Shown piece after piece: positions 7,040-61,235 of a DNA stretch of 64,000 bases (position 1 is its first letter; each line of letters begins with the position of its first letter). The position numbers and the translations under genes were made by a program. Location: assembly GCA_947073545.1 (NCBI GenBank), contig CAMTMP010000021.1, forward strand, positions 1 through 64,000, written 5' to 3'. Origin of the DNA: an uncultured bacterium (GTDB taxonomy: Bacteria; Bacillota; Clostridia; Lachnospirales; Lachnospiraceae). The notes beneath the pieces are model-generated. The model was not told the origin of the DNA. It searched no databases and saw only the letters and a list, made by a program, of their open reading frames with translations.

Positions 7040-7079
7040 GATCAATTCACATATGGGATATATTTATTCCACGGATTGC

Positions 7080-8673: not shown

Positions 8674-8726
8674 CAAAATATGGCGGAACACATTGTCCAT
8701 TTCCACTTGATATGCTAAAGTAAAAA

Positions 8727-8823: not shown

Positions 8824-8867
8824 GCACTGCTGTCAGCGATAACAAACCAACAAAAGGAAATCCTGCC

Positions 8868-35592: not shown

Positions 35593-35694
35593 ACTCTTGT
35601 ACTCCCTCAGTCTCTGAACCAATTTCTAAAAGTCCGTTTTTTCATTTTGTCACATGTTGTCCGAAAAAGCAAGTTTTAGCGGACATGTTCTCAC

Positions 35695-37374: not shown

Positions 37375-38403
37375 TTACAGGCGAATGCGGTACCAAATAT
37401 TGCGAAACAGCTCCCACTGTATCCTTGCGTAAGCAAAAAATCGCGACGATACAAAGCGAACCCGCTTTTCTCTGCCTTTCTTTGAGCAGACAAGACGCAG
37501 TCCCTCAAACGTTCCCTGCAGCCAGCTTTTGACCAGCCCCTTTTTCAGGAAGAAGAGCGTCTTTACCGAAAAACCCGCAAGCAGAAAAGGCAGGTTCAAA
37601 AGAATCTGCACCGGAGGCATATTCTTATAAACAAGATAAACGCTGTTTTTTGCGGAAAGCTTCACCTTGAAGTCGTTGTGACGGGAGCCCGAGACGCCGC
37701 TTCCCGCGTGGCGCACCACCGCCTCCGGCACATAGAGGTTTCGGTACCCGTGTATTTTGGCGCGGTATCCGATATCCACATCCTCCAGATAGGCGAAGTG
37801 GTGCTCATCCAGCAAACCGATCTGTACAAGGATGCTCCTGCGGTAAATACAGGCGCCCCCGCAGGCCGAAAAAATTTCTCTGGGCCGCCCATAGGCTGCC
37901 GCCGGCCTGTCCTTGCCCACAGCGAAAGCCCACCCAAGCGCACAATAATAGTCCCCCGCGTCGTCAATCAGCTCCGGGCGGTACAGGTTTACCATCCGCG
38001 CCGCCCCGGAAAAAACGCTTTCGTCCTGATCCAGCGCATGTTCCAGCGCGCGGACGAATCCGGGCTCCACAACCGTATCATTGTTCAATAAAATAACATA
38101 CGTTGTTTTATCTCTTCCACTCTCCTCAATCCCCCTGTTTACCGCCCCGCAGAAGCCGTAATTCTTATCTAGGGCAATCAGGCGGACGGACGGAAATTTC
38201 TCCCGCACAAGCTCCCTGCTCCCGTCTGAAGAGCCGTTGTCCACCACAATCACAAGGGCGGGTTCCTCCGCCAGCGAAACAAGGCAGTTCTCTATATACT
38301 TCATCCCATTATAGTTAGGAATGACAATCGCAGAGCGGACACCACCGCCTGCGGACTTACCCCGCTGTGGTTCCTCTCCTCTCCCTTTTTCCTTCTGCGG
38401 CAT
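37375..38403 (-). CDS. glycosyltransferase family 2 protein
   Basis: GT-A transferase of 342 residues from the ATG at 38403 (AGGAGGG site); the open frame upstream has no better start. AIVIPNYNGMKYIENCL and VVDNGSSDGSRELVREKFP mark the nucleotide-binding part; LLNNDTVVEPGF holds the donor-site Asp. EDVDIGYR with downstream RHAGSG resembles rhamnosyltransferases of the WcaE/RfbG type. The C-terminus has one or two hydrophobic amphipathic segments that may attach to the membrane. Probably adds one residue of the repeat unit; linkage unknown. Confidence 0.85.
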   Translation of the reverse strand: MPQKEKGRGEEPQRGKSAGGGVRSAIVIPNYNGMKYIENCLVSLAEEPALVIVVDNGSSDGSRELVREKFPSVRLIALDKNYGFCGAVNRGIEESGRDKTTYVILLNNDTVVEPGFVRALEHALDQDESVFSGAARMVNLYRPELIDDAGDYYCALGWAFAVGKDRPAAAYGRPREIFSACGGACIYRRSILVQIGLLDEHHFAYLEDVDIGYRAKIHGYRNLYVPEAVVRHAGSGVSGSRHNDFKVKLSAKNSVYLVYKNMPPVQILLNLPFLLAGFSVKTLFFLKKGLVKSWLQGTFEGLRLVCSKKGREKRVRFVSSRFFAYARIQWELFRNIWYRIRL

Positions 38404-38541
38404 GATTCCCTCCTGATTTTCTGTGCCTTTGCTTTCGGCAACCGCGAAACACATCATAGCCCTAATTTTAGGCCTATACTTGTTGTGCGCATAGCATAAT
38501 TATAAGCAGACCCTTGTAAAACGTTGGTACTTGTTTTGCCG

Positions 38542-39963
38542 TTATAAGCAGATCGTAATTCCGGGGTCCCACACCACAAGATACCCTTCCCTGCGCACCG
38601 CCTCTCCAAGCGCCATGCCAAGCTTCCGGTATCCCACCTCGTCACAGGTAAGCCCGGACATATCCGCAAGCCGGATTGTCTTCGTTCCACGCCCCTCTTT
38701 CACACGGACGCTTTTCTCCCGATAGGGCAGCCCCGTAATCTCAAAATATAACGGTCGTAATTCTTTCCGCAGCCTCATACAGCGGATGTCCACCGCGGCG
38801 CAGTCCTGCCGCAGCGCGGCAAGATGTGTGCTGCCTCCCGTAAAGCGGGCCGGAAGTCCCTCGAAGAGACAGCGTCCCGCTTCGTCGTAGCCACCCGCAA
38901 ATATGCGGCCTTTTCCATCAAGAATCCGTCCGCCCGTCATGCCCGCATCCCGCCTTGCCTCCAGCAGATCCGGCTCATAGACGATGCGGTAAAAGCCCAG
39001 ATGCAGGCTGTGCTCCACTTCCGCCCGAATCCCCCGCACTGCGCAGAAATCCGCAAGTGCACGCCGCCCCGCCTCGTAGGCGTAGGTTTTGCTCCCCGTA
39101 TTGAGAGCCGTGGAATCCCTGTGGGAACGCCAGTGATAGAGCACCTTGGGAATATGGCAGATACGCGCGGTCTGCGGGGTGAGCGCGTCTTCCTCCCAAA
39201 GACTGTCCACCACCCGAAGCACCAAATCATAATCCTGCGCACCGTCATAGTCCCCGCGCAGCTTCAGGCGCTTCATCAGCCCTGCCTCCACCGCCATAAA
39301 ATGGCAGATATAGTTGTTTGACAATATTAAATCCAGATTAAAGTTTTTCTTTCTATTAGGAAATACAAGGGTTTGCGCACTCTCATCGTACTTGTCCTCA
39401 TCCGAGTAGAGAAGAACCGGCGGGCATCCCTCCTGCCTGCTCTGATGTACGAAATACGCCATCTCATATAACGCATCAGGTGTTATGAAATCATCATGGT
39501 CGAGAAGGGCAATGTAATCTCCCCCCGCCAGATCAATCCCCGCATTGGTATTCTCTGCAATGCCTTTGTTCTCTGAAAGGCGGCCGTAGCGTATCCGCAG
39601 ATCGCCGGTCTCGTGAATCATCTGCCGCACCGTGCGCTCTACGGCGCTGCCCACGCTGGCATCCACGATCACCAGTTCCCAGCGGGTATAGCTCTGTGCC
39701 TGCACAGAGGCGATCATTTCCCGCAGGTGCGCCTCCTTCGTCTCATAAGCCGGCGTTACAATACTGAACAAATACGGATAATCCGCCGTCTCCTGCCTCT
39801 GCTCTTCGAGCGTCTGTTTGTCCGGAAGCATATAGCGGTAATCCGCCTTTTTTTCCTCCTGTACACGCTCCGCCGCCGCATAGAAAGTACCCGCCAATCC
39901 GTTTTTTTTCAAATAATTTACGGTTTTTCTCACATTGTCGATTCTCAGTATCCGATTTCCCAC
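38542..39963 (-). CDS. glycosyltransferase family 2 protein, single-domain paralogue
   Basis: 473 residues from a GTG at 39963 (AGGAG site). A short N-terminal helical region precedes the GT-A domain: YLFSIVTPAYETKEAHL near 62, ENTNAGIDLAGGDYIALLDHDD near 135, SNNYICHF near 218, then KVLYHWRSHRDST. The same order and motifs occur in the N-terminal half of the 42100-44133 protein, so the two are paralogues. The later part (about 310-473) has no second complete GT domain but keeps a remnant with YLVVWDPG at the end. Likely one glycosidic step in the same polymer. Confidence 0.82.
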   Translation of the reverse strand: MGNRILRIDNVRKTVNYLKKNGLAGTFYAAAERVQEEKKADYRYMLPDKQTLEEQRQETADYPYLFSIVTPAYETKEAHLREMIASVQAQSYTRWELVIVDASVGSAVERTVRQMIHETGDLRIRYGRLSENKGIAENTNAGIDLAGGDYIALLDHDDFITPDALYEMAYFVHQSRQEGCPPVLLYSDEDKYDESAQTLVFPNRKKNFNLDLILSNNYICHFMAVEAGLMKRLKLRGDYDGAQDYDLVLRVVDSLWEEDALTPQTARICHIPKVLYHWRSHRDSTALNTGSKTYAYEAGRRALADFCAVRGIRAEVEHSLHLGFYRIVYEPDLLEARRDAGMTGGRILDGKGRIFAGGYDEAGRCLFEGLPARFTGGSTHLAALRQDCAAVDIRCMRLRKELRPLYFEITGLPYREKSVRVKEGRGTKTIRLADMSGLTCDEVGYRKLGMALGEAVRREGYLVVWDPGITICL

Positions 39964-42099: not shown

Positions 42100-44133
42100 T
42101 TAGCTCCTTGTTTTCAGAATTTTCAGCGCGAAATCGCTGCGGTCCAGCGAAAAATTCGGATTGTAATAGGGATCCCCCTTCTCCAGCAGTTCTTTCCACC
42201 GCTCCCGAAACAGCGCCGCTTCTTTCTCGTAGCGTTCGGCGTTTCCCCCGCTTAAGTCTGTCCCCCGGGACGCCGACTCATAGTGATACAGCTCCGCAAA
42301 GGGGGTAAAGACATTTACCCGCCCGGCCTTCCAGGCACGGATGCACAGGTCCACATCATTCAATGCCACGGCAAACGTCTCGTTCAGCCCGCCCAGCTCC
42401 TCATAGAACGCTTTCCGCATCATAAGGCAGGCTCCTGTCACCGCCATCACGTTCTGCGCGTAACACAGACGACCCATATAACCGAGATTTCGATGATCCA
42501 CACGGTAATGGCTGTGCCCCGCCGTCCTGTGCGCGCCAAGCCCCAGAACCACGCCCGCATGCTGGATCGTCCTGTCCTCGTAGTAGAGCTTTGCGCCCAC
42601 CGCGCCCACATCTTTTCTCTGGGCATACATCAGCAGTTCTTCAATCCAGTCCGGTGTTATGACACTTGTGTCGTTATTTAGGAGGAGCACATATTCGCCC
42701 TCCGCCCGGGAAACACCCAGATTATTGATTTTGGAATAGTTAAATTCCCCTTCGTATGTGACAACCCGGATCAACGGATTCTCCTGTATTTGTTTATAAT
42801 AAGAAAAGATTTCCTCCGAGACGCTGTTGTTTTCCACCACAATAATTTCATAGTTGTCGTAGGTGCTGCGCTCCAATATCGAGGTAATGCAGCGCGTCAG
42901 ATCTTCGGGATGATCCTTGTTCGGAATCACTATGGACACCTTCGGATTGCCGAGAATCTCATACTTGATCTGGAAAATCGTCTCAAACGCCTTGGTGGAA
43001 ATGATCTCAAAGTTTTTAAAGCCCTGTGATTTCAGATGGGCCGCCACCGCCCCTTTGGCCGCCTCGATGGCGTAGCTCTTCGCACTGATATCGGAAGCCA
43101 CGCTGCCCGCATGAGACCGCCAATAATACATCAGCTTCGGCACATGCACCACGCACTTGGCACGGGCGGTAAGCCGCAGAATCATGTCATGATCCTGACT
43201 GCCGTCAAACTCGGAGCGGAAAAGCTCCGTGCCGTCTAAAAGCCGTCTCGCAAAAGCGCTGAAATGGCAGATGTAATTGTTTGCCCGCAGATTGTCCGGC
43301 GCATAGTCCGGCTTAAAATGCAGGGTGATCATGTCGTCTATAGTGCCGCTGCCCTTGAAGGTGGCCTCATCACAATAGATATAGTCCGCCCCTTTCTCGC
43401 AGATCACCTTCATGTACTCATAAAGAACGCTCGGATGCAGCACGTCGTCATGGTCGAAAAGCGCGATGTAATTTCCCGAAGACATGGACAGGCAGGCGTT
43501 GGTATTTCCGGAGATACCCTCGTTTTTAGGAAGCTTCTTATACAATATGCGGCAATAGAGGCTGCTGCTGGGGCGAAGATATTGTTTATCTCTCTCCATA
43601 TATTCCCGGCAGACCTGCTCCACATAGGCATGCTCCTCGTCCGACCCGTCCGCCAGACACAGCTCCCAGCCCTCGTATGTCTGGTCCATGACGGACTCGA
43701 TGGCCTGCCGTAAAAACTTCTCCGGCGTATTATAGAGCGGCATAAGAATGCTGAACTTGACCTCTCTGTCAAATTTATGGAGGCGCTGTCTCGCCGCCTC
43801 CGGCAGTTCCGGAAAGCCGGCCGATCCGTGCTGCGCCCTCGCCTGCCGCTCGATCATTTTTGCATTCAGTTTGCGGGCAATCCCCTTGATACTCCCGTAA
43901 TAGCCAAGACGTTCCTTCACCCGGACAAGCTTATGAAACAGCATACGCAGCGGCTTGGATGCGCGCCAGAGAAGACTTCCCTTGAGTCTTGTCAGTTTCC
44001 CCTCCTCCTGCGCCATAATCTGTTCCGCCTCCGAGAGTTTTTGCGTGAGCGCACGGCCCCGGCGTTTCTCTCTGCCGTAGGCTTCCTTATAAAAGCGTAG
44101 CGCTTCTGACTCCGTCATTTCCTTCCGTTCCAT
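42100..44133 (-). CDS. two-domain family 2 glycosyltransferase
   Basis: 677 residues from the ATG at 44133 (AAAGGAG site). The N-terminal helical region (about 1-110) has coiled-coil character. First GT-A domain: VKFSILMPLYNTPEKFLRQA, NTNACLSMSSGNYIALFDHDD, ANNYICHFSAF. Second GT-A domain from about 395: VSIVIPNKDHPEDLTRCI, IVVENNSVSEE, LLLNNDTSVITPDW, ALNDVDLCIRAWKAGR. Bifunctional polymerising transferases with this layout add alternating residues. Paralogous to 38542-39963. It overlaps nothing and lies 71 bp after the next GT. Confidence 0.85.
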   Translation of the reverse strand: MERKEMTESEALRFYKEAYGREKRRGRALTQKLSEAEQIMAQEEGKLTRLKGSLLWRASKPLRMLFHKLVRVKERLGYYGSIKGIARKLNAKMIERQARAQHGSAGFPELPEAARQRLHKFDREVKFSILMPLYNTPEKFLRQAIESVMDQTYEGWELCLADGSDEEHAYVEQVCREYMERDKQYLRPSSSLYCRILYKKLPKNEGISGNTNACLSMSSGNYIALFDHDDVLHPSVLYEYMKVICEKGADYIYCDEATFKGSGTIDDMITLHFKPDYAPDNLRANNYICHFSAFARRLLDGTELFRSEFDGSQDHDMILRLTARAKCVVHVPKLMYYWRSHAGSVASDISAKSYAIEAAKGAVAAHLKSQGFKNFEIISTKAFETIFQIKYEILGNPKVSIVIPNKDHPEDLTRCITSILERSTYDNYEIIVVENNSVSEEIFSYYKQIQENPLIRVVTYEGEFNYSKINNLGVSRAEGEYVLLLNNDTSVITPDWIEELLMYAQRKDVGAVGAKLYYEDRTIQHAGVVLGLGAHRTAGHSHYRVDHRNLGYMGRLCYAQNVMAVTGACLMMRKAFYEELGGLNETFAVALNDVDLCIRAWKAGRVNVFTPFAELYHYESASRGTDLSGGNAERYEKEAALFRERWKELLEKGDPYYNPNFSLDRSDFALKILKTRS

Positions 44134-44204
44134 AGAACTCCTTTCCCTATCACAAAACGCCTCTTCTCCATACCGCAAAACCACCGCTGCGCTTCACAAT
44201 CGTC

Positions 44205-46598
44205 TCACACCCTGAGCGTGCGCTCAGACCATGCCGCAAAGCAGATCCCCTCTTCTGTCCCGTCTGCCGCTTCCGCGTCTGCCAGCATACCGACCCGGTA
44301 CTCTCCCTGTACCAGCTCCTCCCGCCGCAGGCGCAGCACAAAACCAGCCAATCCGATATGTTTCTCCTCCGGCAGAATTGCCTCCACATCCGCCCTGTGC
44401 CAGTCCGCCGGAACTGCCAGATAACCCGCGCCGTCCGCTCTCTGTAAAATCACTTTACGGCAAAAAGCCGCGTTGTCGGCTCCGGAGATATAGCTCCATC
44501 CCATAATCCACACAATGTCCGGCTCGTCCGCCAAAATCTTATGCTGCGGTTCGGCCAGATCCACGGTGAGCCGCAGTATGCCCGGCCCGGCCTTTTTCAG
44601 CAGCCTGCGCAGGGACGATTTCGAAACAAACGAGGCCTCCTGCACGCAGAGATGATCTTCGTAAGGAAACTTATAATTACACATGTAATTTGACGCGTTG
44701 TCAATCAAATCAACATGGTAAAAAGGGTCTTTTCCGCGAAGTTTCGGATGTTTTTGGTAAAGCGTCTCCTTCTCTGCAAGCAGCCTTTCCCATTTTCCCT
44801 CGTTCTGCTCATCGAGACCGCGGCTTAAGGATTCGTGGTGCCAGAGAATCGCGTCGTTTCTCTGTACATTGACGTAGCCCGCCTCCAACAGCTTAAAGCA
44901 GAAATCCACATCGTTGTAGGCCACCGGCAGATTCTCGTCCAGACCGCCCACTTTCTCATACTTCTTCCGCGACACCATCAGACAGGCCGCCGTCACCGCC
45001 GCCACATTATAGGTGACCCGGTTTCTCCCGAAATAATAGTCTTCCTCGTCGGGAAACGTAATCAGTTTATGGGAAGGCCCTATTTTCAGATTGGTAACAC
45101 CCGCGTGCTGGATCTTTTCCGAACCCGCATACCACAGCTTCGCGCCGACGGCTCCCACATGAGGCAGAAGCGCCTGTCCCGCCATGCGTTCCAGCCAGCT
45201 TCCCTCAATAATTTCTATATCATCGTTCATGAGAAGAATCAGGTCTCCCTTCGCCCTCTTCTCACCCAGATTGCACATTTTGGAAAAATCAAAAGGCATC
45301 GGCTCATAAATATAGGTAAAACCATAGAGTTTCTGCAGCGCCTCCACTTTTTCCCGGTTTACCTCACTGCTCCCGTTATCCACCACAATCCACTCATAAA
45401 AGCGGTACCGCGTCTTTTCCTTAAAGGATCGAAGACATTTCTCCAGCACTTCAGGATGGTCTTTGGACGGAATGATCACGGACACCACGCGATGCGGCGC
45501 AATCGCCGTATTTTCACTGCCCGACCGGGTACACCGCTCCGTGCCGGAAACGGAAGTGTCGTAGAGCAGGTGGTAAATATCCGGGTCTGCCCCCTGCCGC
45601 AGCGTACCGCGGCCGCCTCTGCGCATCAGCATGTCTTCCTTGAGCGTCACATAGGCGCTAGAGGCGCCGATCAGAAAACGTCCCTCCGCAAGCTCCTTTT
45701 TCAGGCTCTTCTGAACCACGGAAAACTGTTCCCTTGGCGAAAGGGTTTCCATGCCCGCAGCGTCTCCCTCCGGCATCCGGTACCTCCTGTGATAAAGTAT
45801 GGCATCCAGATGACCGATGGCCTCTCTCCTTCTTCTGAAGTACCCCTGCGAAAGTTCCTCGATCTCCTCCTCCAGCCGCAGACACAGCTCGTAAAAGCCC
45901 AGATCGGGGTCTTTCATGCTCACGGCCCGGTAACTCATGCTGTCGAGCACGCCGACCCGAACCGCCACAAAATGCCCCCAATACTGGATCGCAAGAAGGG
46001 TGTCCGGGGAATAAGCCGGTTTCAGCCACGGCTCCATCCGCCAGGTCAGTTCCTCCCAATAAAAATCCTCATCCGCATAGGCCAGAAGACACGCGCCGTT
46101 CTTTTCAAAAAAACCGCGCACTTCGGAAAACACATGGGGCGCAAGCAGGCCGTCTCCATAAGTCAGAATACGAATGTCCGACTCCGGCACCGCAAGTTCC
46201 CGAAACCCACGCACCACAATCGGTTCCGGCGAATTAATAACATCTGTATTTTTATCCTCACAGGCCGCAATCCATTGCAGATAGGGATTGGACTGCCGCC
46301 AGAGAGTCTCCTCATACGCCTGTCTTCTCTCCTCCGAAACCTGAATTTTTGACAAGCTCTCCTCCGAAGCCGCCGTGCCTCTCATACGGCGTACCGCGCT
46401 GCGCAGAGGCGCCGACACTTTCGCCGCCATCCTGTATAACGGATTGGCGCAGATACGGTTCAGATTATCCCGCAGATCCGCCTGCCGCCTTTCCGCATCC
46501 GCAATGCGTCCGGCCATCTGGGTATTCTTTTTTCGTTCTTCCTCATAGGCCGCCATGTAATAGGCTGCCCAGTCAAAACGTTTTTTCTGAATGCTCAT
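44205..46598 (-). CDS. large family 2 glycosyltransferase
   Basis: 797 residues. A coiled-coil-like start (residues 1-60) and a degenerate GT-like region (about 110-330, with PWLKPAYSPDTLLAIQYWGHF) precede a full GT-A domain: VSVIIPSKDHPEVLEKCLRSF, IVVDNGSSEVNREK, LLMNDDIEIIEGSWLERMAG, YNDVDFCFKLLEAGYVNV. The C-terminal 170 residues are a beta-rich accessory domain. The ATG at 46598 overlaps the TGA of the methyltransferase-kinase gene (TGATG), so the two are translated together. The partner context suggests work on the same acceptor end of the chain. Confidence 0.82.
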   Translation of the reverse strand: MSIQKKRFDWAAYYMAAYEEERKKNTQMAGRIADAERRQADLRDNLNRICANPLYRMAAKVSAPLRSAVRRMRGTAASEESLSKIQVSEERRQAYEETLWRQSNPYLQWIAACEDKNTDVINSPEPIVVRGFRELAVPESDIRILTYGDGLLAPHVFSEVRGFFEKNGACLLAYADEDFYWEELTWRMEPWLKPAYSPDTLLAIQYWGHFVAVRVGVLDSMSYRAVSMKDPDLGFYELCLRLEEEIEELSQGYFRRRREAIGHLDAILYHRRYRMPEGDAAGMETLSPREQFSVVQKSLKKELAEGRFLIGASSAYVTLKEDMLMRRGGRGTLRQGADPDIYHLLYDTSVSGTERCTRSGSENTAIAPHRVVSVIIPSKDHPEVLEKCLRSFKEKTRYRFYEWIVVDNGSSEVNREKVEALQKLYGFTYIYEPMPFDFSKMCNLGEKRAKGDLILLMNDDIEIIEGSWLERMAGQALLPHVGAVGAKLWYAGSEKIQHAGVTNLKIGPSHKLITFPDEEDYYFGRNRVTYNVAAVTAACLMVSRKKYEKVGGLDENLPVAYNDVDFCFKLLEAGYVNVQRNDAILWHHESLSRGLDEQNEGKWERLLAEKETLYQKHPKLRGKDPFYHVDLIDNASNYMCNYKFPYEDHLCVQEASFVSKSSLRRLLKKAGPGILRLTVDLAEPQHKILADEPDIVWIMGWSYISGADNAAFCRKVILQRADGAGYLAVPADWHRADVEAILPEEKHIGLAGFVLRLRREELVQGEYRVGMLADAEAADGTEEGICFAAWSERTLRV

Positions 46599-48742
46599 CA
46601 GCTAAACAACCCTCTTTTCTGCAAATGTTTCATGGTTTCCGGCGGCATCGCGGTCACTTCCATAACCGCCTCCAGTCGATTCTCCTCCTCAGAGTGCAGT
46701 CCCCAGAGAGAGAGGGTAATGTTCGGATCATCTGTAGGAAAAGCATACGTATCTTCTCCGATTTTAAACCCGTTCATCTGAAGCTGTTTCCCTTTCAGTG
46801 GAATTTCAACGCCGTTCCACGCGATTCTTCTGATATAAATCAGACAGGCACGACTGCCCGGATCGATTCTCACCGCGCTTCTTCCCCTTGCGATACGCAC
46901 GGAGAGCTCCACCGTTCCTTCCCCGGTGCGCAAAACCTGTTCGCCGTCCTCCTCCGGGAAAAAGGACTGCTCCTCGCGAAACCCCTTCCCCGTGTCTTCA
47001 TAAATCTGTATACGGCTGGCCGCAGGCTTATTTCGCAGCCCCTCGCAGAAATCCGTAAGCGTGTAAACCGGCTGGCCGATCGCCTCCCGGATCTCCGCCA
47101 TGGAAAGACGCTTCCCCGTCACATATTTTTGAAACTTCATTTCCTGTCTGCGGTACTGCTGCGCCTCGGCAGGTTCGATTTTTAGTTTTTCCATTATTAA
47201 ATCCGGATTTAATTTATTTCTTTTCTCATCCTCGAGGAGATAACAGTACAGCGCACGGAATGCAATTTCCCTCGTCTCAACAGTCTTGTCGAAAGTCCAT
47301 TCACAATCGATTAGTCCCCATTTTTCTTGATTCAAATAACGGTCGATATCACTTTTTTGACTTCCGGCCTCCTTTTCATCACAGATGTTACTTCCTTGAG
47401 GAATCAGTAGATTGGCAAAAATCAGATCGTAATCTGCAATCTCCTTCTCCTCCCCCCAAGAGATCCTTTTCAGATACTCGTCAAAGAGACGGTGAAAGCC
47501 TTCCGGATCATTTTTCTCCAGACACTCATCAAGAATTTCTTCCAGTGTTCTGCCTTCTAAAAATTTAATCGTGATATAAGGCGCTCCGTCCGCCGCTCTT
47601 TCCAGCTTACACGCATTGACCTCCAAAAGGCTTCCCTCATACCGCTCGGCCAGCTTTTCACAGGCTAAAGCCGTGGCTTCTATATGCTTCCACGCATTTT
47701 TCGATAACGGGTGCTTCTCTATTATTCTGCCGAATCCCGTACCTCTCTGCAAGGTTTTAATCTGAAATTCTTCCTTTCTGTCATTGGAATACTTCACATA
47801 TTCCTCTGACAAGGCCGGCCCTAAGAGGAGCATATAGGAATTGGAAAAGAGAGGAAACTGTCCTTCCTTCAAAACCGCATCGAACACCTTCTTTTCATCG
47901 AAGAGCTGTATGCGGTCTCTGTCAAAATTACGCCCGTTATTCGATAATTCTCCACGTTTCGGCAGTCTCCTGTCGGAATAGAGCGTCGTCATAAACTTAT
48001 AATCCGGATAGGGGTAATACATCTGTATCTCCGAAAAGCCGCAGCGTTTCGCGATTGTCACCAGTCCGTCCCTCGTAAAGGTGCGCACCACACCGCCCTC
48101 CGGATAATCCTCAATCCCCCCGAAATAGGTACCCAGATGATCTTCTCTGCACCCTGCCCAATACTTTAATCCAAACTTATTTTCTATGGCAATTGCGATA
48201 TGTCCCCCGGGCTTCAAGTGCTTTTTTATAATGCGCAGGAAATCGTCATATGGCATATTTGAGTCGATATAAGCCTGCGCATACTCAAAGACCCCGATCA
48301 GACAGATGAAGTCGTAATCGTCCGGCAGATCCGGCTCTACATCCTGAAAGTTCCCCACATGGATGGTCACATTGCCCGCCTCCATATGACGGTAGGCATT
48401 TATCATGCTGCGCTTTTTCGAAAGCTCCACACATGTCACTTCCCCGGCCCGCCTCGACAAGGCTCCCGTGATCGCGCCGCAGCCCGATCCGACCTCCAGC
48501 ACCTTCATGGCCCGGTTGAGGGGCAGCCACTCCACTATATTTTCCCGAAGCGGGGAGAGGTGATACAGGATTTCCCAGCTCTTCCTCTCCTCGATGATCT
48601 TCCGATACTCCACCTCCGCATATTCTCTCGTTATCGCAAGGAGCTCATCCTCAATCTCACCGTCACAATACAGGTCTTCTCCGGGATATTTTGTTAAATC
48701 TATTTTTATTTTTCCAATTTGTTCCATTTTATCTTCCGGCAT
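46598..48742 (-). CDS. fused methyltransferase-kinase, WbdD-like chain terminator candidate
   Basis: 714 residues, cytoplasmic. N-terminal class I SAM methyltransferase (about 50-260) with motif I VLEVGSGCGAITGAL at 81-95 and acidic E106 at the end of beta-2. A kinase-like domain (about 315-500) has a small-lobe pattern near 325-400, a catalytic-loop-like DYDLIFAN with D439 and N444, and a metal-site LIDCEW with D479, E481. The C-terminal part has a helical segment, then a beta-rich domain. The order methyltransferase, kinase, C-terminal extension is that of E. coli O9a WbdD, which phosphorylates and methylates the chain end to stop growth. It lies beside wzt. The kinase assignment is by motif reading. 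Confidence 0.65.
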   Translation of the reverse strand: MPEDKMEQIGKIKIDLTKYPGEDLYCDGEIEDELLAITREYAEVEYRKIIEERKSWEILYHLSPLRENIVEWLPLNRAMKVLEVGSGCGAITGALSRRAGEVTCVELSKKRSMINAYRHMEAGNVTIHVGNFQDVEPDLPDDYDFICLIGVFEYAQAYIDSNMPYDDFLRIIKKHLKPGGHIAIAIENKFGLKYWAGCREDHLGTYFGGIEDYPEGGVVRTFTRDGLVTIAKRCGFSEIQMYYPYPDYKFMTTLYSDRRLPKRGELSNNGRNFDRDRIQLFDEKKVFDAVLKEGQFPLFSNSYMLLLGPALSEEYVKYSNDRKEEFQIKTLQRGTGFGRIIEKHPLSKNAWKHIEATALACEKLAERYEGSLLEVNACKLERAADGAPYITIKFLEGRTLEEILDECLEKNDPEGFHRLFDEYLKRISWGEEKEIADYDLIFANLLIPQGSNICDEKEAGSQKSDIDRYLNQEKWGLIDCEWTFDKTVETREIAFRALYCYLLEDEKRNKLNPDLIMEKLKIEPAEAQQYRRQEMKFQKYVTGKRLSMAEIREAIGQPVYTLTDFCEGLRNKPAASRIQIYEDTGKGFREEQSFFPEEDGEQVLRTGEGTVELSVRIARGRSAVRIDPGSRACLIYIRRIAWNGVEIPLKGKQLQMNGFKIGEDTYAFPTDDPNITLSLWGLHSEEENRLEAVMEVTAMPPETMKHLQKRGLFS

Positions 48743-48911
48743 GTCCTGTTCCTTCCCATCCGAAGCTGTAGGATCTTTTTCCCTTTTGTTTTACCTGTTT
48801 CTCCAAAATCCTCTTAAAATCTAATTTTATACCGCACGATATTTTATTTCCTTCATAAAATAACATATTTTTTCTAATTGCCCCACCAGCCCGCAATCCA
48901 CACACGGCCAT
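48729..48911 (-). CDS. possible 60-residue small ORF before the methyltransferase-kinase
   Basis: ATG at 48911 after AAGGAAAG, basic protein, ending 14 bp inside the next gene. The 313-bp gap here is otherwise AT-rich, with AAATATGTTATTTTAT occurring twice (about 48856-48872 and 49009-49025, minus-strand reading). It may be a coupled small protein or chance; no family recognised. Confidence 0.25.
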   Translation of the reverse strand: MAVCGLRAGGAIRKNMLFYEGNKISCGIKLDFKRILEKQVKQKGKRSYSFGWEGTGHAGR

Positions 48912-49055
48912 TTCTTTCCTTAAATCCTGTTTATATCTTCCGATTCACAGTCGCTTCGCTTTCCTGCTTCTCCCGCTTCCACTTCTTGCTGCCAGCGCGG
49001 TATTTCGATAAAATAACATATTTATTTTAGATTATTTTAACAAAATCCCGGTCTG

Positions 49056-50384
49056 CTATTTAACGGTAACTTTCGAATTCATGTCGTAGAACCCCACCGT
49101 ATCTTTATCGGAAATTACCGTCACACTCATCACATCGTATAGCCTGTGATACACCGTGAAATCATCTTCCTCATATCCGGTGACCCCCAGAGAGAGCAGA
49201 TACTCTCCTCCCTGCAGATTCATATCCTGTGTAAAAGTAATCTCCTTCGTCTCCCCGGCCTCCACGGACTCCAGAAACGCCTTCTCAAACATCGTATTGG
49301 TGCCCGTAATCTCCGTTCCGCGCACCGTTTTGATGGTAAACGCGAAAATCGGCGCGGCAACCCGCTCCGTCATCACTACACGCATATGAATGGTGAACGC
49401 GCTTCCCTTTAAAATAGTGGAAGTTCTCGTCCCCTTTTCGTCCGTTATATAGTATTCCGTAATCTGCGCCTTTTTAGAACCATACTCCAGAAGATCGGGA
49501 TTTTCGGTACATCCTATCCCCTTGTTTTCGCCCGTTTCTCCCTGCTGTTGTCCTTCCAACTTGCTGCCGTCTACGCCTTTCGCCGCCATTGCACGAAGCT
49601 GCTCGTCGTCAAGCAGACGCTCGACTTCCGATTCGGGCGGCGTATACTGTCCCACCAAAACCTGCTTATAAGTGTCAATCATTTTCTTTGGCGCGCCCTC
49701 TCCCAGCTTAACGCCCTGATTTAGCAGCACCACACGGTCACAGTACTTGCTGATACTGCTCAGATCATGGCTGACAAACACAATCGTCTTGCCCATCGCC
49801 TTAAACTCTTCAAACTTGTGGTAACATTTTGCCTGAAAAAAGACATCGCCCACCGAAAGTGCCTCGTCTACAATGAGAATCTCCGGATCGATATTGATGG
49901 CAACCGCAAAAGCCAGCCGCACGAACATGCCGCTGGAATAGGTTTTGGCCGGCTGATACACATAGTCCCCTATATCCGCAAAGGCCAGAATCTCATCCAT
50001 CTTCCGGTCAATCTCCTTTTGGGAAAACCCGATCATCGTACCGTTCAAATATATATTTTCTATGCCGTTATATTCCATATTAAATCCGGCGCCCAGCTCC
50101 AGCAGGGCGGAAATGCGTCCGTTGACCTCCACATCTCCCGCCGTAGCAGATAGAACACCTGTTATTATTTTCAGAATCGTGGATTTCCCGGAACCATTGG
50201 TACCGATAATCCCCACACACTCCCCCTGCCTTATGGTCATATTGACCCCTTTTAAGGCACGGTGCTCCGTGTGGTGCTTTCCCCGCCCGATATGCAGCGC
50301 CTCTCTGAGTCTGTCCGAGGGCCTGTCATAGAGCTTATACACTTTTTCCAAATCCGTGACCTTAATCGCGATATCATTTTCCAT
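49056..50384 (-). CDS. wzt: polysaccharide ABC exporter ATPase with C-terminal Wzt domain
   Basis: Energises export of the finished polymer; 442 residues. The ATPase domain (1-240) has Walker A GTNGSGKST, signature YSSGMFVRLAFAVA, Walker B ILIVDEALSVGD and switch His in VFVSHD. A Gln/Gly-rich linker follows (about 255-295), then a C-terminal beta-sandwich (about 300-442) like the Wzt-C domain that binds the modified end of O9a/O8 chains in E. coli. The ATPases of teichoic-acid exporters usually lack this type of domain or have a different one. GAGGAA site before the ATG at 50384. Upstream of it lies the repeat-rich 190-bp gap after wzm. Confidence 0.9.
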   Translation of the reverse strand: MENDIAIKVTDLEKVYKLYDRPSDRLREALHIGRGKHHTEHRALKGVNMTIRQGECVGIIGTNGSGKSTILKIITGVLSATAGDVEVNGRISALLELGAGFNMEYNGIENIYLNGTMIGFSQKEIDRKMDEILAFADIGDYVYQPAKTYSSGMFVRLAFAVAINIDPEILIVDEALSVGDVFFQAKCYHKFEEFKAMGKTIVFVSHDLSSISKYCDRVVLLNQGVKLGEGAPKKMIDTYKQVLVGQYTPPESEVERLLDDEQLRAMAAKGVDGSKLEGQQQGETGENKGIGCTENPDLLEYGSKKAQITEYYITDEKGTRTSTILKGSAFTIHMRVVMTERVAAPIFAFTIKTVRGTEITGTNTMFEKAFLESVEAGETKEITFTQDMNLQGGEYLLSLGVTGYEEDDFTVYHRLYDVMSVTVISDKDTVGFYDMNSKVTVK

Positions 50385-50574: not shown

Positions 50575-51609
50575 TTATAGCACGTCCGCAAAATGACTGC
50601 GCAGTCTTCTGAATACCAGCGTCCCGATACAAAACATACTAATCGTGAAGATCCAAAAGTAAGTGGATGAGTAAAAGTGCTCCCAAAACCATTCTTCCTC
50701 AAAGATCGCGCTCCGGTAGCCGTTTACGATATATACAAGCGGATTCAGCTTAAAGAGCGTCTTCATGTTATCGCTTGGAAGCATCTTGATATTCCACATG
50801 ATGGGGGTTGCCCACATACCGATCTGGAGCGCAATGCTGATCACCTGCTGCAAATCCCTGATAAAAACTACCAGCGCGCTGGTCAGATAACTCAGCGCCA
50901 GCACGAAGAAAATCAGACACAGGCTGTAATAGAGAAGCTGTATGGTGTAAATGGTGGGCACATAGCCGTAGCACACCGCCACCACCAGCAGAATGCACAC
51001 GAAAAACACATGGATAAAGGTGGCCGCTATCACCTTGATAATCGGCAGAATGCTGATGTTAAACACAACCTTCTTGACCAGATAGGTGTACTCCACAAGC
51101 GCCATCGTCCCTTGAGAAATCGCCTCCGAGAAATAAAACCATGGCACCAGCCCGGCCATCAGATACAGTACGTAGGGCGGTGTTTCGCCATCTGCTGCCA
51201 CAAACTCCACCCTCGCCTGAAACACTTTATCAAACACAATCCAGTACATCAGCACCGTCACCACGGGCTGCGCCAGCGCCCACACCATTCCCAGATAGGA
51301 ACCTGCGTAACGTTTCTTAAAGTCATTTTTCGCCAGTTTCCAGATCAACCCCCTGCTCTGAAAAAGTTCCACCGGAATGGTCACAATCCGGTCATAGTAT
51401 ATCGTAAACATGATGCAGGTAAAGGTTAACAGTACGCAGCCGCTGACTTTCTTCATCCGCTCCGTCACCTGATCCGCCAACGGATTATGGTGCAGAATCA
51501 GCACAGAGGCCAAAAGCAGACCAAGCCCCCAGAATATCGCTATCGCCGCGGACTTCGGAAATACTTTCTTCTTTGTGAAATTTTTCTCTGTCTGCCTGTT
51601 TTCGCTCAT
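50575..51609 (-). CDS. wzm: polysaccharide ABC exporter permease
   Basis: Channel-forming half of the exporter, 344 residues from the ATG at 51609; the open frame further upstream overlaps rmlC and is not part of the gene. The N-terminal 90 residues hold two extra membrane helices (residues 18-70) before the usual ABC-2 permease core of six helices (from about residue 90: WKLAKNDFKKRYAGSYLGMVWALAQPV). Wzm proteins are often about 260 residues, so this one carries an N-terminal addition of about 80 residues. Paired with wzt. Confidence 0.88.
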   Translation of the reverse strand: MSENRQTEKNFTKKKVFPKSAAIAIFWGLGLLLASVLILHHNPLADQVTERMKKVSGCVLLTFTCIMFTIYYDRIVTIPVELFQSRGLIWKLAKNDFKKRYAGSYLGMVWALAQPVVTVLMYWIVFDKVFQARVEFVAADGETPPYVLYLMAGLVPWFYFSEAISQGTMALVEYTYLVKKVVFNISILPIIKVIAATFIHVFFVCILLVVAVCYGYVPTIYTIQLLYYSLCLIFFVLALSYLTSALVVFIRDLQQVISIALQIGMWATPIMWNIKMLPSDNMKTLFKLNPLVYIVNGYRSAIFEEEWFWEHFYSSTYFWIFTISMFCIGTLVFRRLRSHFADVL

Positions 51610-51652
51610 ATCTTTTGCCTTCTTCAATTTCAGATGCCTCTTTTGGGCATCC

Positions 51653-52204
51653 TCACTTTTTACACTTGGAAAGCCCCTCCCAATTTTTATCTTTTTCGGA
51701 CATGATAAGCTCCATACCCTCCGGAATCGGCCAGTCGATCCCGATTTCAGGATCGTTCCAGAGGATGCCCCCCTCGTCGTTCGGGTGGTAAAAGTCCGTA
51801 CACTTATAGGCGAACTCCGCGAAATCCGACAGCACCACAAAGCCATGGGCAAAATTCTTCGGAATGAAAAACTGCTTTTTATTTTCCGCAGAGAGCGTTA
51901 CACCGTACCACTTGCCGTAAGTCGCTGAGCCCGGCCGCAGATCCACCGCCACATCAAAAACTTCCCCGGAAATCACGCGCACCAGCTTATCCTGCGGATA
52001 ATTAATCTGGAAATGCAGTCCCCTGAGCACACCCTTCACGGACGAAGACTGGTTATCCTGCACAAAAACCTGATCAATCCCCGCCGCCTTGTAATCCTCA
52101 TAGTGATAGGTCTCCATAAAATAACCCCTGCTGTCCCCAAACACCGCCGGGGTGATCACCTTTAATCCCTCAATCTCGCATGTCTCCACCGTTATTTTTC
52201 CCAT
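51653..52204 (-). CDS. rmlC: dTDP-4-dehydrorhamnose 3,5-epimerase
   Basis: Third step of dTDP-L-rhamnose synthesis, cytoplasmic dimer. 183 residues from the ATG at 52204 (AAGGAGG site). Cupin fold with DSRGYFMETYH, FVQDNQSSSVKGVLRGLHFQ containing the active His, DVAVDLRPGSATYGKW and FIPKNFAHGFVVLSD. Complete motif set. It lies 48 bp after a GH25 gene and 43 bp before wzm. RmlA and RmlB are in the same locus; RmlD is not in the window. Confidence 0.93.
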   Translation of the reverse strand: MGKITVETCEIEGLKVITPAVFGDSRGYFMETYHYEDYKAAGIDQVFVQDNQSSSVKGVLRGLHFQINYPQDKLVRVISGEVFDVAVDLRPGSATYGKWYGVTLSAENKKQFFIPKNFAHGFVVLSDFAEFAYKCTDFYHPNDEGGILWNDPEIGIDWPIPEGMELIMSEKDKNWEGLSKCKK

Positions 52205-52252
52205 CCTAGTCTCCTCCTTGCCATTTGTCATTCACCTGCCGATCTGGCTGAA

Positions 52253-53605
52253 CTATTCTACTGGTACATTTCCCGTATCCCCGTTTACTACGCCGGAATA
52301 TCCTCCCGCACCTTTGGCGTGGTTGATCGAAGTGTCTATATTCATATAGCACAGGTTCAGATCTACATTTGTGGAAATACCGTCCACCGTTCCCTTGGAG
52401 GTATACTGCCACATATGGTAGTAATACGCATCGTATGTAGGCGCGTCCGCATATTCTGCAAGCCATATCCTGTAGTCCGACAACCGTGCCATATCTATCC
52501 TGTCACCCAGCCAGTTGCGCGAAGCATATACGCCCGTCTCATAACCCGCCGCTTCTATGGTCTGTAGGAAAGCCCTGTGCGCTCTTGTCCGCTCGTCGCT
52601 GTCCAAACCGTCGGCGCGCCCCTTGCCACCTGCGCTCTCGCTGTCAAGGAATACCGGATAATCCACATCGTAATTCTCAATCAGACGGATTACCATGGAC
52701 GCCTCCTCCACAGCCTCAATTTCATCCAGCGCCTGTGTAAAGAAATAAACGCCCACGGGAATGCCCGCCGAGATCGCGCCCTCTATATTCTCTTTGTATC
52801 TGGGATCAATGACCAGCGCGCCAGTTGACGCTCCACGGTATCCGCATCGGATAATAGCAAATTCGATGCCTGCATCCTTCACTGCCTCCCAGTCGATCTC
52901 CTGATTCCACTTGGACACGTCGATGCCGAGCTTCGCGCTGCCGTTGTCAAACTGAAGCTCCATATGCTCCGTGCCGTCCGCGTCCTCCTCGGCTCCATTG
53001 ACCGCCTTGTCCTCCTTCTCGGGGTCAATGTCATCCTCCGTCAACATCAGATACTCAATGTTGTCGAGCACCCGGTACTCGATATCCTGCCGCACCTGAA
53101 TCGTCGTGATGGTGTTAGGCACGCGGAATCCGTCCTTCTCATTGAGGAACACGCTGTACTCCCCGGAGCGCAGACCGTCCACATAGATCACGCCATCCTT
53201 GTCATTATCCGTGTACTCGCCTACGTCCTGAATCGTGACGGTAAAATCCGCCCCCGTCACCAGACGGCCGATGCTGTCCACCACCATAATCCGCAGATCC
53301 TTAGCCACGGAACTCATCATCAGCGACACATTCCTGCCGGAGTAGGACTCGATGCTCTTAAATTTTACTTCCGGATCAAAAAAGGTTTCATCTCTCAGAA
53401 AAGCAGACAGATCACCCCCTATCTGTCCATCTTCCGGCACCGCCGTCTCCTCCGGCGAAAGCTCCTCCTCTGACGCAGGCTCCTCTACGGCAAAGCCGAG
53501 CTTGCGTTTCACCGCATCTAAATTCACAACGGCGATCACCGCAAACACCGCCAAAAATACGACGATCATACCGGCCATCGCCCGCCTCATCCGCTTAGAG
53601 TCCAT
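52253..53605 (-). CDS. membrane-anchored GH25 lysozyme
   Basis: Peptidoglycan muramidase, 450 residues from the ATG at 53605 (AGAGG site), overlapping the end of rmlA. Signal-anchor helix at about 10-30, acidic linker, a beta-sandwich (about 75-175) with [18 protein letters not shown] like CnaB/carboxypeptidase-regulatory folds, then the GH25 barrel: [13 protein letters not shown] (catalytic Asp), [37 protein letters not shown] (Asp/Glu), MWQYTSKG. It shares this whole plan with the lysozyme at 61263-63998. It may open the wall for polymer attachment or export. Confidence 0.88.
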
Positions 53606-54464
53606 TTGCAACCTCTACTATATACTGTCCGTAAGCAGTTTTCATAAGCGGCTCCGCCAGCTTAAGAAGCTGCTCCTTATTGATAAAGCCTCTCCTGTAC
53701 GCGATTTCCTCAATACAGGAAATATAAAGCCCCTGCCGTTTCTGGAACGCAGCCACAAAATCCGCCGCGTCGAGCAGCATATCGTGGCTGCCTGTATCCA
53801 GCCATGCGAAACCGCGCCCAAGCGTCTCCACCCGAAGCGTTCCCCTGCGCAGATATTCATTGTTCACGCTTGTAATCTCTATCTCGCCTCTGGCAGAGGG
53901 TTTCACGTTCTTCGCGATCGCCACCACGTCATTGTCATAAAAGTACAGCCCGGGCACCGCGTAGTTGCTCTTCGGGTGATCCGGCTTCTCCTCGATGGAC
54001 AGAGCCATGCCGTTCTCGTCAAACTCCACCACACCGTACTCTCTCGGGTCTCTCACATAGTAGCCAAAGATGGTCGCGCCGCTCTCTCTGGCCGTCACCT
54101 CCTTAAGCACCTTTGAAAAACTCTGGCCGTAAAAAATATTGTCGCCAAGAATCAGCGCCACACTGTCCGTCCCGATAAAATCCGCACCGATGATAAAAGC
54201 GTCGGCAAGCCCCCTCGGGTACTCCTGCACCGCATACTCCATGCGCAGCCCAAGCTGTTCCCCCGTGCCGAAAAGCTCCTGAAACACGGGAAGGTCCCTC
54301 GGGGTGGAAATAATCATGACCTCCCTGATCCCCGCCAGCATCAAAATAGACAACGGATAATAAATCATCGGTTTGTCATACACCGGCATAATCTGTTTGG
54401 AAACCGCCTTGGTCAACGGATAGAGTCTGGTACCCGAACCGCCTGCTAAAATAATTCCTTTCAT
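53595..54464 (-). CDS. rmlA: glucose-1-phosphate thymidylyltransferase
   Basis: Makes dTDP-glucose from dTTP and glucose 1-phosphate; 289 residues, full length. N-terminal signature [53 protein letters not shown], and [24 protein letters not shown] site. It follows DUF4956 by 35 bp and overlaps the GH25 start by 11 bp, so the operon is tight here. The glucose 1-phosphate can come from the mutase at 40067-41788. Confidence 0.95.
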
Positions 54465-54499: not shown

Positions 54500-55174
54500 T
54501 CAGAAAGTCACTTCCCCATCATGATCCACCAGAGAGGCGGAGGTGACGCCCGGAAGATCCATCAGTTCCTCCATCAGCCTGCCTCCTGCTTCTGTTTTGA
54601 CCTCCACCGCCATGTTCAGCTTATCTCTCGTCAGATTGCGCGCTTTCACCTGAAACATGCTGCAGTGTCTTTCCACAATGTCCATAATCCGCCCTTCCGC
54701 CTTATAATCGGAAGCGTTCACCAAAAGGATCACCGCGGGCACGCCGGACGGCACCCTGTCAAATAATAATATTATCACAGTTATGACGATTGATGCAACT
54801 ACCGCCACCACCGCGAAGCCCGCACCGCATATGATGCCGACGCTGATTGACCAGAACAGAAACACCAGATCCATGGGATCTTTGACTGCAGTACGAAACC
54901 GCACAATGGAAAGCGCGCCCACCATGCCAAGGGAAATCACGATGTTTGACTGGATCGTCAGGATCACCGCCGCCGTGATCACGGAAAGCGCGATCAGGGA
55001 GAGATTAAAGTTCCGGTTGTAAAAAGCATTCTTATTTATGGTCTTGTAAATCAAAAAAATATAGGCGGCAATCAGCACCGTAATCACCATGCATATCACG
55101 ATCTGGGCCACATCGATCCGAACGGATGCATAGCCCTCCAGAAACGATTGTTTGAAAATATCAATAAAGCTCAT
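54500..55174 (-). CDS. DUF4956 membrane protein
   Basis: 224 residues. Four membrane helices (about 22-43, 58-78, 84-105, 108-140) contain the [20 protein letters not shown] block characteristic of DUF4956 and reminiscent of MgtC-type proteins. The cytoplasmic C-terminal domain (about 150-224) has an ACT-like beta-alpha layout. The ATG at 55174 overlaps the stop of the VTC gene by 4 bp. DUF4956 is commonly next to VTC and CotH in bacteria; its molecular function is not known to me. A transport or partner role for the VTC enzyme is inferred. Confidence 0.85.
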
Positions 55175-55890: not shown

Positions 55891-55922
55891 CCGTCATTTC
55901 CACTAAGAACGCGCTCCTTGCG

Positions 55923-57184: not shown

Positions 57185-57292
57185 ATATACCTCCCTGTCA
57201 ATGCGCCGAGTCGTCATGACATACCTCACGGGGTTCCTGTCCTTCGATCCCGCTTCGATTCTGTTTCGCTTCCGCTTCGATTCCGGGTCCGT

Positions 57293-61173: not shown

Positions 61174-61235
61174 GCTTTTTCCTCCTATCTCCTTCATAAA
61201 AATTCTCTGTATTCCTGTTATATTATCCACGAAAC

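What the first reader, a model, noticed from the sequence alone, without database searches (positions are those of the whole stretch)
46598..50384. WbdD-like methyltransferase-kinase beside a Wzt with a C-terminal domain
Seen: a 714-residue protein with SAM motif VLEVGSGCGAITG, a kinase-like pair (D439/N444 and D479 in LIDCEW) and a C-terminal extension, encoded next to a 442-residue Wzt with a C-terminal beta domain. Known: in E. coli O9a/O8, WbdD caps the polymannose end with phosphate and methyl, and Wzt-C binds that cap for export. Inference: this Gram-positive locus uses chain-end capping to set length and gate Wzm/Wzt export, followed by LCP attachment. I know of no described Gram-positive example with this layout.
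Basis: partly seen in the sequence, partly recalled or inferred. Interest (0 to 1): 0.75.

Follow-up and report, generated by a model that had tools for sequence, protein, structure and literature searches.

The report
Sugar-chain capping enzyme in gut bacteria
A two-part enzyme that probably puts a phosphate and a methyl group on the growing end of a surface sugar chain, so that the neighbouring export pump accepts only finished chains, sits in about half of the gut-bacterial relatives examined, a setting where this machinery seems not to have been described.

Summary
In detail: 46598-48742 (-) encodes a 714-aa methyltransferase + kinase + beta-domain protein, and 49056-50384 (-) a Wzt with a carbohydrate-binding domain (CBD). 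The kinase has no Pfam family, but its model (pLDDT 91) matches kinases and APH-type phosphotransferases, and K343/D439/N444/D479 are invariant in 36 divergent copies. It is not a WbdD: no sequence similarity beyond the SAM motif, and WbdD's phosphate-methylating His-His is Glu-Tyr. It is homologous to a 1457-aa proteobacterial protein beside a Wzt, whose SAM residues carry exactly the numbers published for Klebsiella O7 ORF6, a proven methyl-phosphate chain terminator (PMC11231755). The kinase is in 156 of 299 genomes of the window's family: 146 of 147 with this CBD type, 10 of 152 others (cut-off chosen afterwards). Methyltransferase, kinase and glycosyltransferase occur split or fused. Best reading: an O7-type methyl-phosphate cap on a rhamnose-containing wall polymer that stops growth and licenses export; biochemistry unproven. 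New: Gram-positive-lineage branch, no coiled-coil ruler, LCP setting. Capped Gram-positive glycans are already known (Geobacillus 2-O-methyl, C. difficile cyclophosphate).

The parts
46598..48742 (-). 714-aa methyltransferase-kinase with C-terminal beta domain: predicted chain terminator
   Evidence: ORF; Pfam; AF2 model pLDDT 88.4; homology to a Pseudomonas asturiensis MT-kinase-GT protein, E 3e-33
47813..48742 (-). methyltransferase domain, residues 1-310
48464..48502 (-). SAM-binding motif VLEVGSGCGAITG, residues 81-93
47057..47812 (-). kinase domain, residues 311-562; catalytic D439/N444 at 47411-47428, D479-E481-W482 at 47297-47308, K343 at 47714-47716
   Evidence: invariant in 36 of 36 rows of A3; model pLDDT 91.3; PRPK/Bud32, APH(3')-Ia, WaaP matches
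46643..47047 (-). C-terminal beta domain, residues 566-700; its profile also hits other ORFs of related loci, some glycosyltransferase-like
   Evidence: strands in model; CTD profile hits; no other window ORF hit
49056..50384 (-). Wzt: ABC ATPase (44-176) plus cap-binding-type C-terminal domain (residues 300-435, 49080-49487)
   Evidence: ABC_tran 5.7e-22, Wzt_C 2.7e-41; 37% identical to E. coli O9 Wzt over 446 columns
50575..51852 (-). Wzm permease (ORF from a TTG; true start probably internal)
   Evidence: ABC2_membrane 6.1e-18
44205..46598 (-). 797-aa family-2 glycosyltransferase directly downstream
   Evidence: Glycos_transf_2 1.1e-16; next recognised gene in 74 of 80 relatives
42100..44184 (-). 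694-aa glycosyltransferase with two GT2 modules; its relatives are fused to the kinase in other loci
   Evidence: Glycos_transf_2 5.8e-45, 2 stretches; fusions
37375..39963 (-). two further GT2 genes (38542-39963 and 37375-38457)
   Evidence: Pfam
35823..37232 (-). WcaJ-type undecaprenyl-phosphate sugar-phosphate transferase (initiation)
   Evidence: TIGR03023 507.4 bits, cut-off 410.75
34426..35622 (-). LytR-CpsA-Psr ligase (predicted wall attachment)
   Evidence: PF03816 7.1e-35
51653..54464 (-). RfbC-like (51653-52231), GH25-like (52253-53611) and RfbA-like (53595-54464) genes; RfbB-like at 60088-61230. Names recalled from sequence, not scanned
   Evidence: ORFs; kept in 74, 66, 72 and 65 of 80 relatives (some loci are short); best RmlD match of the genome is on another contig

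Best explanation
The 714-aa protein is the chain terminator of an ABC-transporter-dependent, undecaprenyl-linked, rhamnose-containing surface polysaccharide. Its kinase domain phosphorylates the non-reducing terminal sugar (by analogy with Klebsiella O7, the 3-OH of a terminal rhamnose) and its methyltransferase domain then methylates the phosphate. The cap stops the neighbouring GT2 glycosyltransferases from adding more sugar, and the C-terminal domain of the adjacent Wzt binds it, so that Wzm/Wzt exports only finished chains; an LCP ligase then attaches them to the wall. Shown: the domains, kinase and methyltransferase folds (predicted models), conserved catalytic residues, homology to a Wzt-linked proteobacterial MT-kinase-GT protein, linkage and co-occurrence with one CBD type, fusion to glycosyltransferases. 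Inferred: chemistry of the cap, acceptor sugar, length control, export gating, LCP step.
Against: No activity or polymer end group is known here. P0001 lacks the coiled-coil ruler of the Klebsiella terminators: the longest helix in its model is 20 residues. The ORF6-O7 sequence itself was not available; the link runs through published residue numbers and a proteobacterial protein. In the outer relatives the N-lobe Lys is not kept in the alignment (H in P. asturiensis, R in C. braakii, N in L154), C. braakii has E for D479 and its kinase is not found by the profiles, and the beta-domain profile hits neither plasmid protein. Fusion proteins L162 and L166 depart at several methyltransferase positions. 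The split kinase L115 of the window's own genome, left out of A3 by my filter, has Glu at D439. WbdD's phosphate-methylation residues H132/H133 are E153/Y154 here, so those residues do not support phosphate methylation. 10 genomes have the kinase without a strong CBD (two, G277 and G090, start within 160 nt of a contig end) and one (G170, downstream side off the contig) the reverse. In the own genome the L115 pair lies near a Wzt with only a weak CBD (2.1e-8), and a 555-aa MT-kinase has no Wzm/Wzt recognised in 18 kb. Of 8 loci fetched from outside the family, 3 have a Wzt with a CBD match, 2 a Wzt without one, 3 neither. The co-occurrence counts are not corrected for shared ancestry and the CBD cut-off was set after seeing the list.
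Confidence: 0.72

Rival explanations
1. Phosphate-only or cyclic-phosphate cap: the kinase product is the export signal, and the methyltransferase acts on a sugar hydroxyl or elsewhere, so the end group is not methyl-phosphate.
For: C. difficile SLCT-11 glycan, also rhamnose-rich and ABC-exported, ends in 2,3-cyclophospho-rhamnose (PMC6254364). WbdD's phosphate-methylation residues are absent here. Phosphorylation alone terminates chains in O9a (PMC3482155 Discussion).
Against: The methyltransferase SAM-site residues and domain pairing follow ORF6-O7, which makes methyl-phosphate. In 20 of 20 sampled split loci the methyltransferase lies directly beside the kinase.
Confidence: 0.2
2. Internal decoration: methyltransferase and kinase modify many repeats along the chain and have nothing to do with termination or export.
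For: MT and kinase are encoded inside a glycosyltransferase cluster; no end-group data exist.
Against: The partner of the kinase is the cap-reading domain of Wzt: 146 of 147 strong-CBD genomes, adjacency in 76 of 80 loci, CBD-kinase co-divergence.
Confidence: 0.1
3. Regulatory protein kinase or pseudokinase controlling the glycosyltransferases rather than a sugar kinase.
For: Nearest folds include protein kinases (Bud32/PRPK, PknB, JAK); many loci fuse it to a glycosyltransferase.
Against: APH and WaaP match about equally well; the ORF6-O7 kinase, to which the homology points, phosphorylates rhamnose in vitro; a conserved catalytic set argues against a pseudokinase.
Confidence: 0.07
4. A true WbdD family member.
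For: Same domain order, same gene order, similar length (714 and 708 aa), kinase fold.
Against: No BLASTP similarity; profile comparison aligns only the SAM region and nothing useful in the kinase; H132/H133 not kept; no coiled coil.
Confidence: 0.03

Closest known systems
Klebsiella pneumoniae O7 ORF6 N-terminal methyltransferase-kinase terminator (PMC11231755: section 11 part 1, section 13 part 1 and passages read)
   Same: Methyltransferase then an unannotated kinase with catalytic Asp at about 440, then a beta (there Ig-like) domain; SAM residues collinear through P. asturiensis; ABC transporter; rhamnose polymer; single-chain relatives continue into GT2 modules as ORF6-O7 does.
   Different: No coiled-coil ruler in P0001; cell-wall locus with an LCP ligase; terminator and glycosyltransferase are separate genes in the window; 26% identity to the P. 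asturiensis relative; ORF6-O7 letters not compared directly; homology of the beta domains not shown. The text read names alpha- and gammaproteobacteria, cyanobacteria and an archaeon, no Gram-positive; supplementary figures S9 and S12 not read.
WbdD of E. coli O9a / K. pneumoniae O3 (PMC3482155: Introduction, Results part 1 and Discussion read; sequence from E. coli HS)
   Same: MT-kinase-C-terminal order, next to Wzt with CBD and before the polymerase gene; kinase fold.
   Different: No detectable sequence similarity outside the SAM region; phosphate-binding H132/H133 absent; no coiled coil.
Geobacillus stearothermophilus WsaE with Wzm/Wzt (PMC2943079, passages read)
   Same: Gram-positive, rhamnan, methyltransferase joined to rhamnosyltransferases, cap predicted to be bound by Wzt.
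   Different: 2-O-methyl cap; the word kinase does not occur in the paper (listing); glycan goes to S-layer protein.
Clostridioides difficile SLCT-11 S-layer glycan (PMC6254364: Discussion and passages read)
   Same: Clostridial, rhamnose-rich, ABC-exported, phosphate on the terminal rhamnose; authors suggest an O9a-like role.
   Different: Cyclic 2,3-phosphate, enzyme not assigned in the text read; protein-linked.
Aquifex aeolicus Wzm/Wzt (PMC9445017, passages read)
   Same: Wzt with CBD; best PDB match of the whole window Wzt (E 2.5e-78).
   Different: Methyl cap; CBD match weak (E 0.063).

Membership tests
ORF6-O7-type methyltransferase-kinase terminators | Methyltransferase with SAM residues equivalent to Y28, Y66, G91, G93, E112, Y158 | tested here: met
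   P0001 Y25, Y60, G85, G87, E106, Y154, aligned through P. asturiensis, which has the published letters at the published numbers
ORF6-O7-type methyltransferase-kinase terminators | Kinase domain without recognised family, catalytic Asp equivalent to D441 | tested here: met
   D439; kinase fold; no Pfam match for the window domain
ORF6-O7-type methyltransferase-kinase terminators | Coiled-coil ruler after the catalytic domains | tested here: not met
   Longest model helix 20 residues; C-terminus is beta-rich
ORF6-O7-type methyltransferase-kinase terminators | Direct sequence similarity to ORF6-O7 itself | not tested
   Its sequence was not obtained; only residue numbers from the paper were used
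ORF6-O7-type methyltransferase-kinase terminators | Methyl-phosphate on terminal rhamnose | not testable with these tools
   needs assay or NMR
WbdD (O9a) | Sequence similarity to WbdD | tested here: not met
   BLASTP best E 2.1; hhalign SAM region only, probability 52%; kinase profile probability 0.6%
WbdD (O9a) | Phosphate-methylation residues H132, H133 (R203 not mapped) | tested here: not met
   aligned with E153, Y154, which are invariant in 66 of 66
WbdD (O9a) | Kinase fold between methyltransferase and C-terminal region | tested here: met
WbdD (O9a) | Kinase structurally closest to WbdD's | tested here: inconclusive
   WbdD is not among the 50 rows shown
WbdD (O9a) | C-terminal coiled coil | tested here: not met
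Wzt with cap-binding C-terminal domain | ABC ATPase plus Wzt_C domain over Pfam cut-off | tested here: met
   141.3 bits, cut-off 30.4; 2r5o E 5e-9
Wzt with cap-binding C-terminal domain | Binds the capped chain end | not testable with these tools
   needs binding assay

The most novel reading that the evidence does not exclude
About half of Lachnospiraceae genera make a wall-linked, rhamnose-containing polymer whose non-reducing end carries a (methyl-)phosphate cap. The cap is written by a methyltransferase-kinase of the Klebsiella O7 type and read by a matching Wzt domain. Chain length is set without a coiled-coil ruler, by physical coupling or fusion of terminator and glycosyltransferase. 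This would be a Gram-positive-lineage branch of cap-licensed export.
Probability: 0.55. Interest if true: 0.75.

Novelty: new variant of a known kind. Interest (0 to 1): 0.64.

Why it matters
How Gram-positive bacteria set the length of wall polysaccharides and decide when to export them is largely open (my general knowledge, not a search). Here a single testable signal, a capped chain end, would do both, in a family of gut bacteria whose surface sugars meet the host immune system. The kinase-CBD pairing could let cap chemistry be predicted from genomes. The range from separate genes to one-chain methyltransferase-kinase-glycosyltransferase proteins gives natural variants for testing how length is measured without a coiled-coil ruler. 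The window's kinase domain has no Pfam match, and the two plasmid relatives are annotated only as a methyltransferase and a glycosyltransferase.

Tried and rejected
WbdD membership: rejected after fetching E. coli HS WbdD.

Kinase by sequence alone: weak. The profile of the whole protein hit GCN2 at 2.4e-4 and JAK2 at about 0.005; the kinase-only profile reached only 0.06; one member of 36 each matched Pkinase (0.0023) and APH (0.0043). The separate structure model was needed. The whole-protein fold comparison listed methyltransferases only. WbdD is not among the rows; that does not exclude similarity.

Methyltransferase-only systems (the O8 type): suspected because many hits stopped near residue 307, but in 20 of 20 loci picked from these a kinase ORF follows the methyltransferase.

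Wzt-MT-kinase fusion in L049: one 1171-aa frame, but the sequence holds many N; not used.

Broad searches with a methyltransferase in the query pick up the SAM motif: many weak rows (176 of 299) are probably of that sort, and in the phylum search 184 of 398 genomes 'match', but only 13 listed rows, from 12 genomes, score above 190 bits. The kinase-only search was run for this reason.

One search used only rows listed (listings were truncated): 125 of the 176 hit genomes, second rows of a genome dropped. Of these 96 lie 0-400 nt, 6 lie 401-1000 nt and 11 lie 1001-6000 nt downstream of a Wzt_C; 6 have no Wzt_C listed, 4 lie on another contig or strand, 2 elsewhere.

Literature: 10 full-text searches in an open-licence library found no description of a methyltransferase-kinase terminator in Gram-positives. 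Subscription journals, preprints and supplements were not searchable. A review I wanted (10.1128/MMBR.00009-10) is not held.
Full report
What is in the sequence. The minus strand of the window carries, in transcription order, rfbB-like, a block of three other genes, rfbA-like, a GH25-like gene, rfbC-like, wzm, wzt, the 714-aa protein, two large GT2 glycosyltransferases, a phosphohexomutase-like gene, two more GT2 genes, a WcaJ-type initiating transferase, an LCP ligase and a further GT2 (the rfb, mutase and GH25 names are recalled from sequence, not scanned). Both proteins of the finding are at the stated coordinates. The 714-aa protein scores only as a methyltransferase in Pfam and NCBIfam. 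The Wzt is a full ATPase plus Wzt_C domain.

Is it WbdD? I fetched the E. coli HS O9 locus (wzm, wzt, a 'class I SAM-dependent methyltransferase', wbdA, then a GT4 gene and wbdC); the methyltransferase is WbdD (PDB 4azs over residues 2-556). Gene order and domain order agree with the window, and the Wzts are 37% identical over 446 columns, CBD included (CBD alone 29.5% over 149, NBD 47.7% over 241). The terminators themselves are not detectably similar outside the SAM region. WbdD's phosphate-methylation residues H132 and H133 (PMC3482155) align with E153 and Y154, invariant in 66 of 66. So it works like WbdD but is not one.

What it is related to. A tblastn search of plasmids found two Gram-negative relatives (2 records of 72,556): a 1457-aa 'glycosyltransferase' of Pseudomonas asturiensis (query residues 25-547, 26%, E 3e-33) and a 649-aa 'methyltransferase' of Citrobacter braakii (query residues 13-346, 31%, E 1e-30). 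Each directly follows an ABC permease and ATPase; in both the ATPase C-terminus matches the window CBD (E 1.6e-13 and 5.1e-10). The kinase profile finds the P. asturiensis kinase (E 3.3e-10) but not the C. braakii one, and the beta-domain profile finds neither. Klebsiella O7 ORF6 is described as N-terminal methyltransferase, unannotated 223-aa kinase with catalytic D441, Ig-like domain, coiled coil and two rhamnosyltransferases, 1414 aa; SAM residues Y28, Y66, G91, G93, E112, Y158 (PMC11231755, section 11 part 1, section 13 part 1, passages). The P. asturiensis protein has exactly those letters at those six numbers, and its aligned catalytic Asp is 443; they align with Y25, Y60, G85, G87, E106, Y154 and D439 of P0001. 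ORF6-O7 makes a methyl-phosphate at O3 of the terminal rhamnose; D441A abolishes phosphorylation and blocks export. This is the best guide to function. The direct sequence of ORF6-O7 was not available, and P0001 lacks the coiled coil that the authors regard as the marker of the strategy: its longest predicted helix is 20 residues.

How general it is. In 299 genomes of the window's family (298 genera; Lachnospiraceae by most record titles) the kinase profile hits 156 (E 1e-6 or better) and Wzt_C hits 180. Of 147 genomes with a strong Wzt_C score (E below 1e-36, a line drawn after seeing the list), 146 have the kinase; of the other 152, 10 do. With any Wzt_C the table is 149/7/31/112. The one strong-CBD genome without a kinase, G170, has its CBD at a contig end with the downstream side missing; two of the ten opposite cases (G277, G090) also start at a contig end. 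Counts are not corrected for ancestry. Physically, 113 of 125 genomes with listed hits have the gene within 6 kb downstream of Wzt_C, 96 within 400 nt. Among 80 named loci (the best 80 of at least 589 found), Wzt with CBD is the immediate upstream recognised gene in 76 and a GT797 relative the downstream one in 74. In 99 loci CBD and kinase divergence correlate after removing the ATPase (partial r 0.63, 0 of 500 permutations; the reverse control, ATPase-kinase given CBD, is 0.38). Outside the family it is sparse: in a 398-genome phylum sample 12 genomes, four of them in the home family, score above 190 bits. Of the 8 others, whose loci I fetched, L149 keeps wzm-wzt-CBD, methyltransferase, kinase and a downstream ORF with glycosyltransferase similarity; L152 and L153 have a Wzt with CBD match, L151 and L154 a Wzt without one, L150, L155 and L156 (6.2 kb only) neither.

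Modularity. In 20 of 20 loci chosen because the methyltransferase match stopped near residue 307, the next ORF starts with the kinase; in 6 of the 20 that ORF also matches a glycosyltransferase, and two more are very long (962 and 1557 aa). Of 11 loci chosen for long frames, 7 encode methyltransferase-kinase-glycosyltransferase in one chain (1239-1891 aa) and 4 a kinase-glycosyltransferase beside a separate methyltransferase; Pfam finds GT modules in the 4 fusions scanned. Some fused methyltransferases depart from the family at several positions (L162, L166). Terminator and polymerase are thus repeatedly tied together, as WbdD recruits WbdA in O9a (PMC3482155) and as ORF6-O7 is built.

Mechanism. 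Und-PP-linked chain made by the GT2 enzymes; kinase phosphorylates the end sugar; methyltransferase methylates the phosphate; Wzt CBD reads the cap; Wzm exports; LCP ligates. The first step's enzyme class, the partners and their pairing are supported; the acceptor, the methylation target and gating are inferred. Cap chemistry could instead be a bare or cyclic phosphate, as on the C. difficile SLCT-11 glycan.

Against. No end-group data; no coiled coil; N-lobe Lys and D479 vary in the outer relatives; own-genome copies break the simple pairing: L115 has a split MT/kinase pair (Glu at D439) with a weak CBD (2.1e-8), L114 a 555-aa MT-kinase with no Wzm/Wzt recognised in 18 kb. G000's two other Wzt_C genes (C1, C27; weaker scores) have no kinase in the stretches read, which fits the pairing.

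Novelty. Cap-licensed export is known, also proposed for Gram-positive S-layer glycans. What I did not find in print (open-licence library only) is a methyltransferase-kinase terminator in a Gram-positive, its pairing with one CBD type across half of a family, the one-chain fusions there, or the combination with an LCP ligase.

Noticed in passing
window 48855-48876 and 49008-49029: Two copies (91% identical) of an AT-rich 22-nt direct repeat in the 313-nt gap between wzt and the methyltransferase-kinase gene; no promoter or terminator consensus there. In 63 of 77 relatives the gap is 80 nt or less.
   Followed up: partly
window 54500-60070: A block resembling DUF4956, a VTC-type polyphosphate polymerase domain and a CotH-like 925-aa protein (names recalled from sequence) sits between the rfbA- and rfbB-like genes; similar blocks are upstream in L034-L036 and L041 and downstream of the kinase in L133, but were not labelled in the other loci.
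   Followed up: no
window 52253-53611 and 61263-63737: Two GH25-like lysozyme-type proteins (label recalled from sequence) are conserved members of the locus, in 66 and 59 of 80 relatives; why hydrolases travel with a capped polymer is unclear.
   Followed up: no
L115 (G000:C6) 1849-10456 and L114 (G000:C7) 8344-10011: The same genome has a second wzm-wzt with a weak CBD followed about 4.6 kb later by split methyltransferase and kinase genes (Glu at the catalytic Asp), and a third MT-kinase of 555 aa without a recognised transporter in 18 kb.
   Followed up: partly
L168 8920-13293; L169 5947-7896; L138 17966-20092: Probable or known chain terminators annotated only as 'glycosyltransferase' or 'class I SAM-dependent methyltransferase', on a Pseudomonas and a Citrobacter plasmid and for E. 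coli HS WbdD itself.
   Followed up: yes
L049 8600-12112: Wzt-CBD and MT-kinase form one 1171-aa frame, but the stretch holds many unknown bases; may be an artefact.
   Followed up: no
G170:C288:283-696: The only genome of 147 with this strong CBD type that lacks a kinase match; its CBD lies on the minus strand 282 nt from a contig end, so the downstream gene may simply be missing from the assembly.
   Followed up: no
L116 5987-7663 and 11360-14536; L123 9556-11967; L149 3909-9286: The profile of the terminator's C-terminal beta domain also hits other ORFs of polysaccharide loci, some glycosyltransferase-like; perhaps a shared glycan-binding module.
   Followed up: partly
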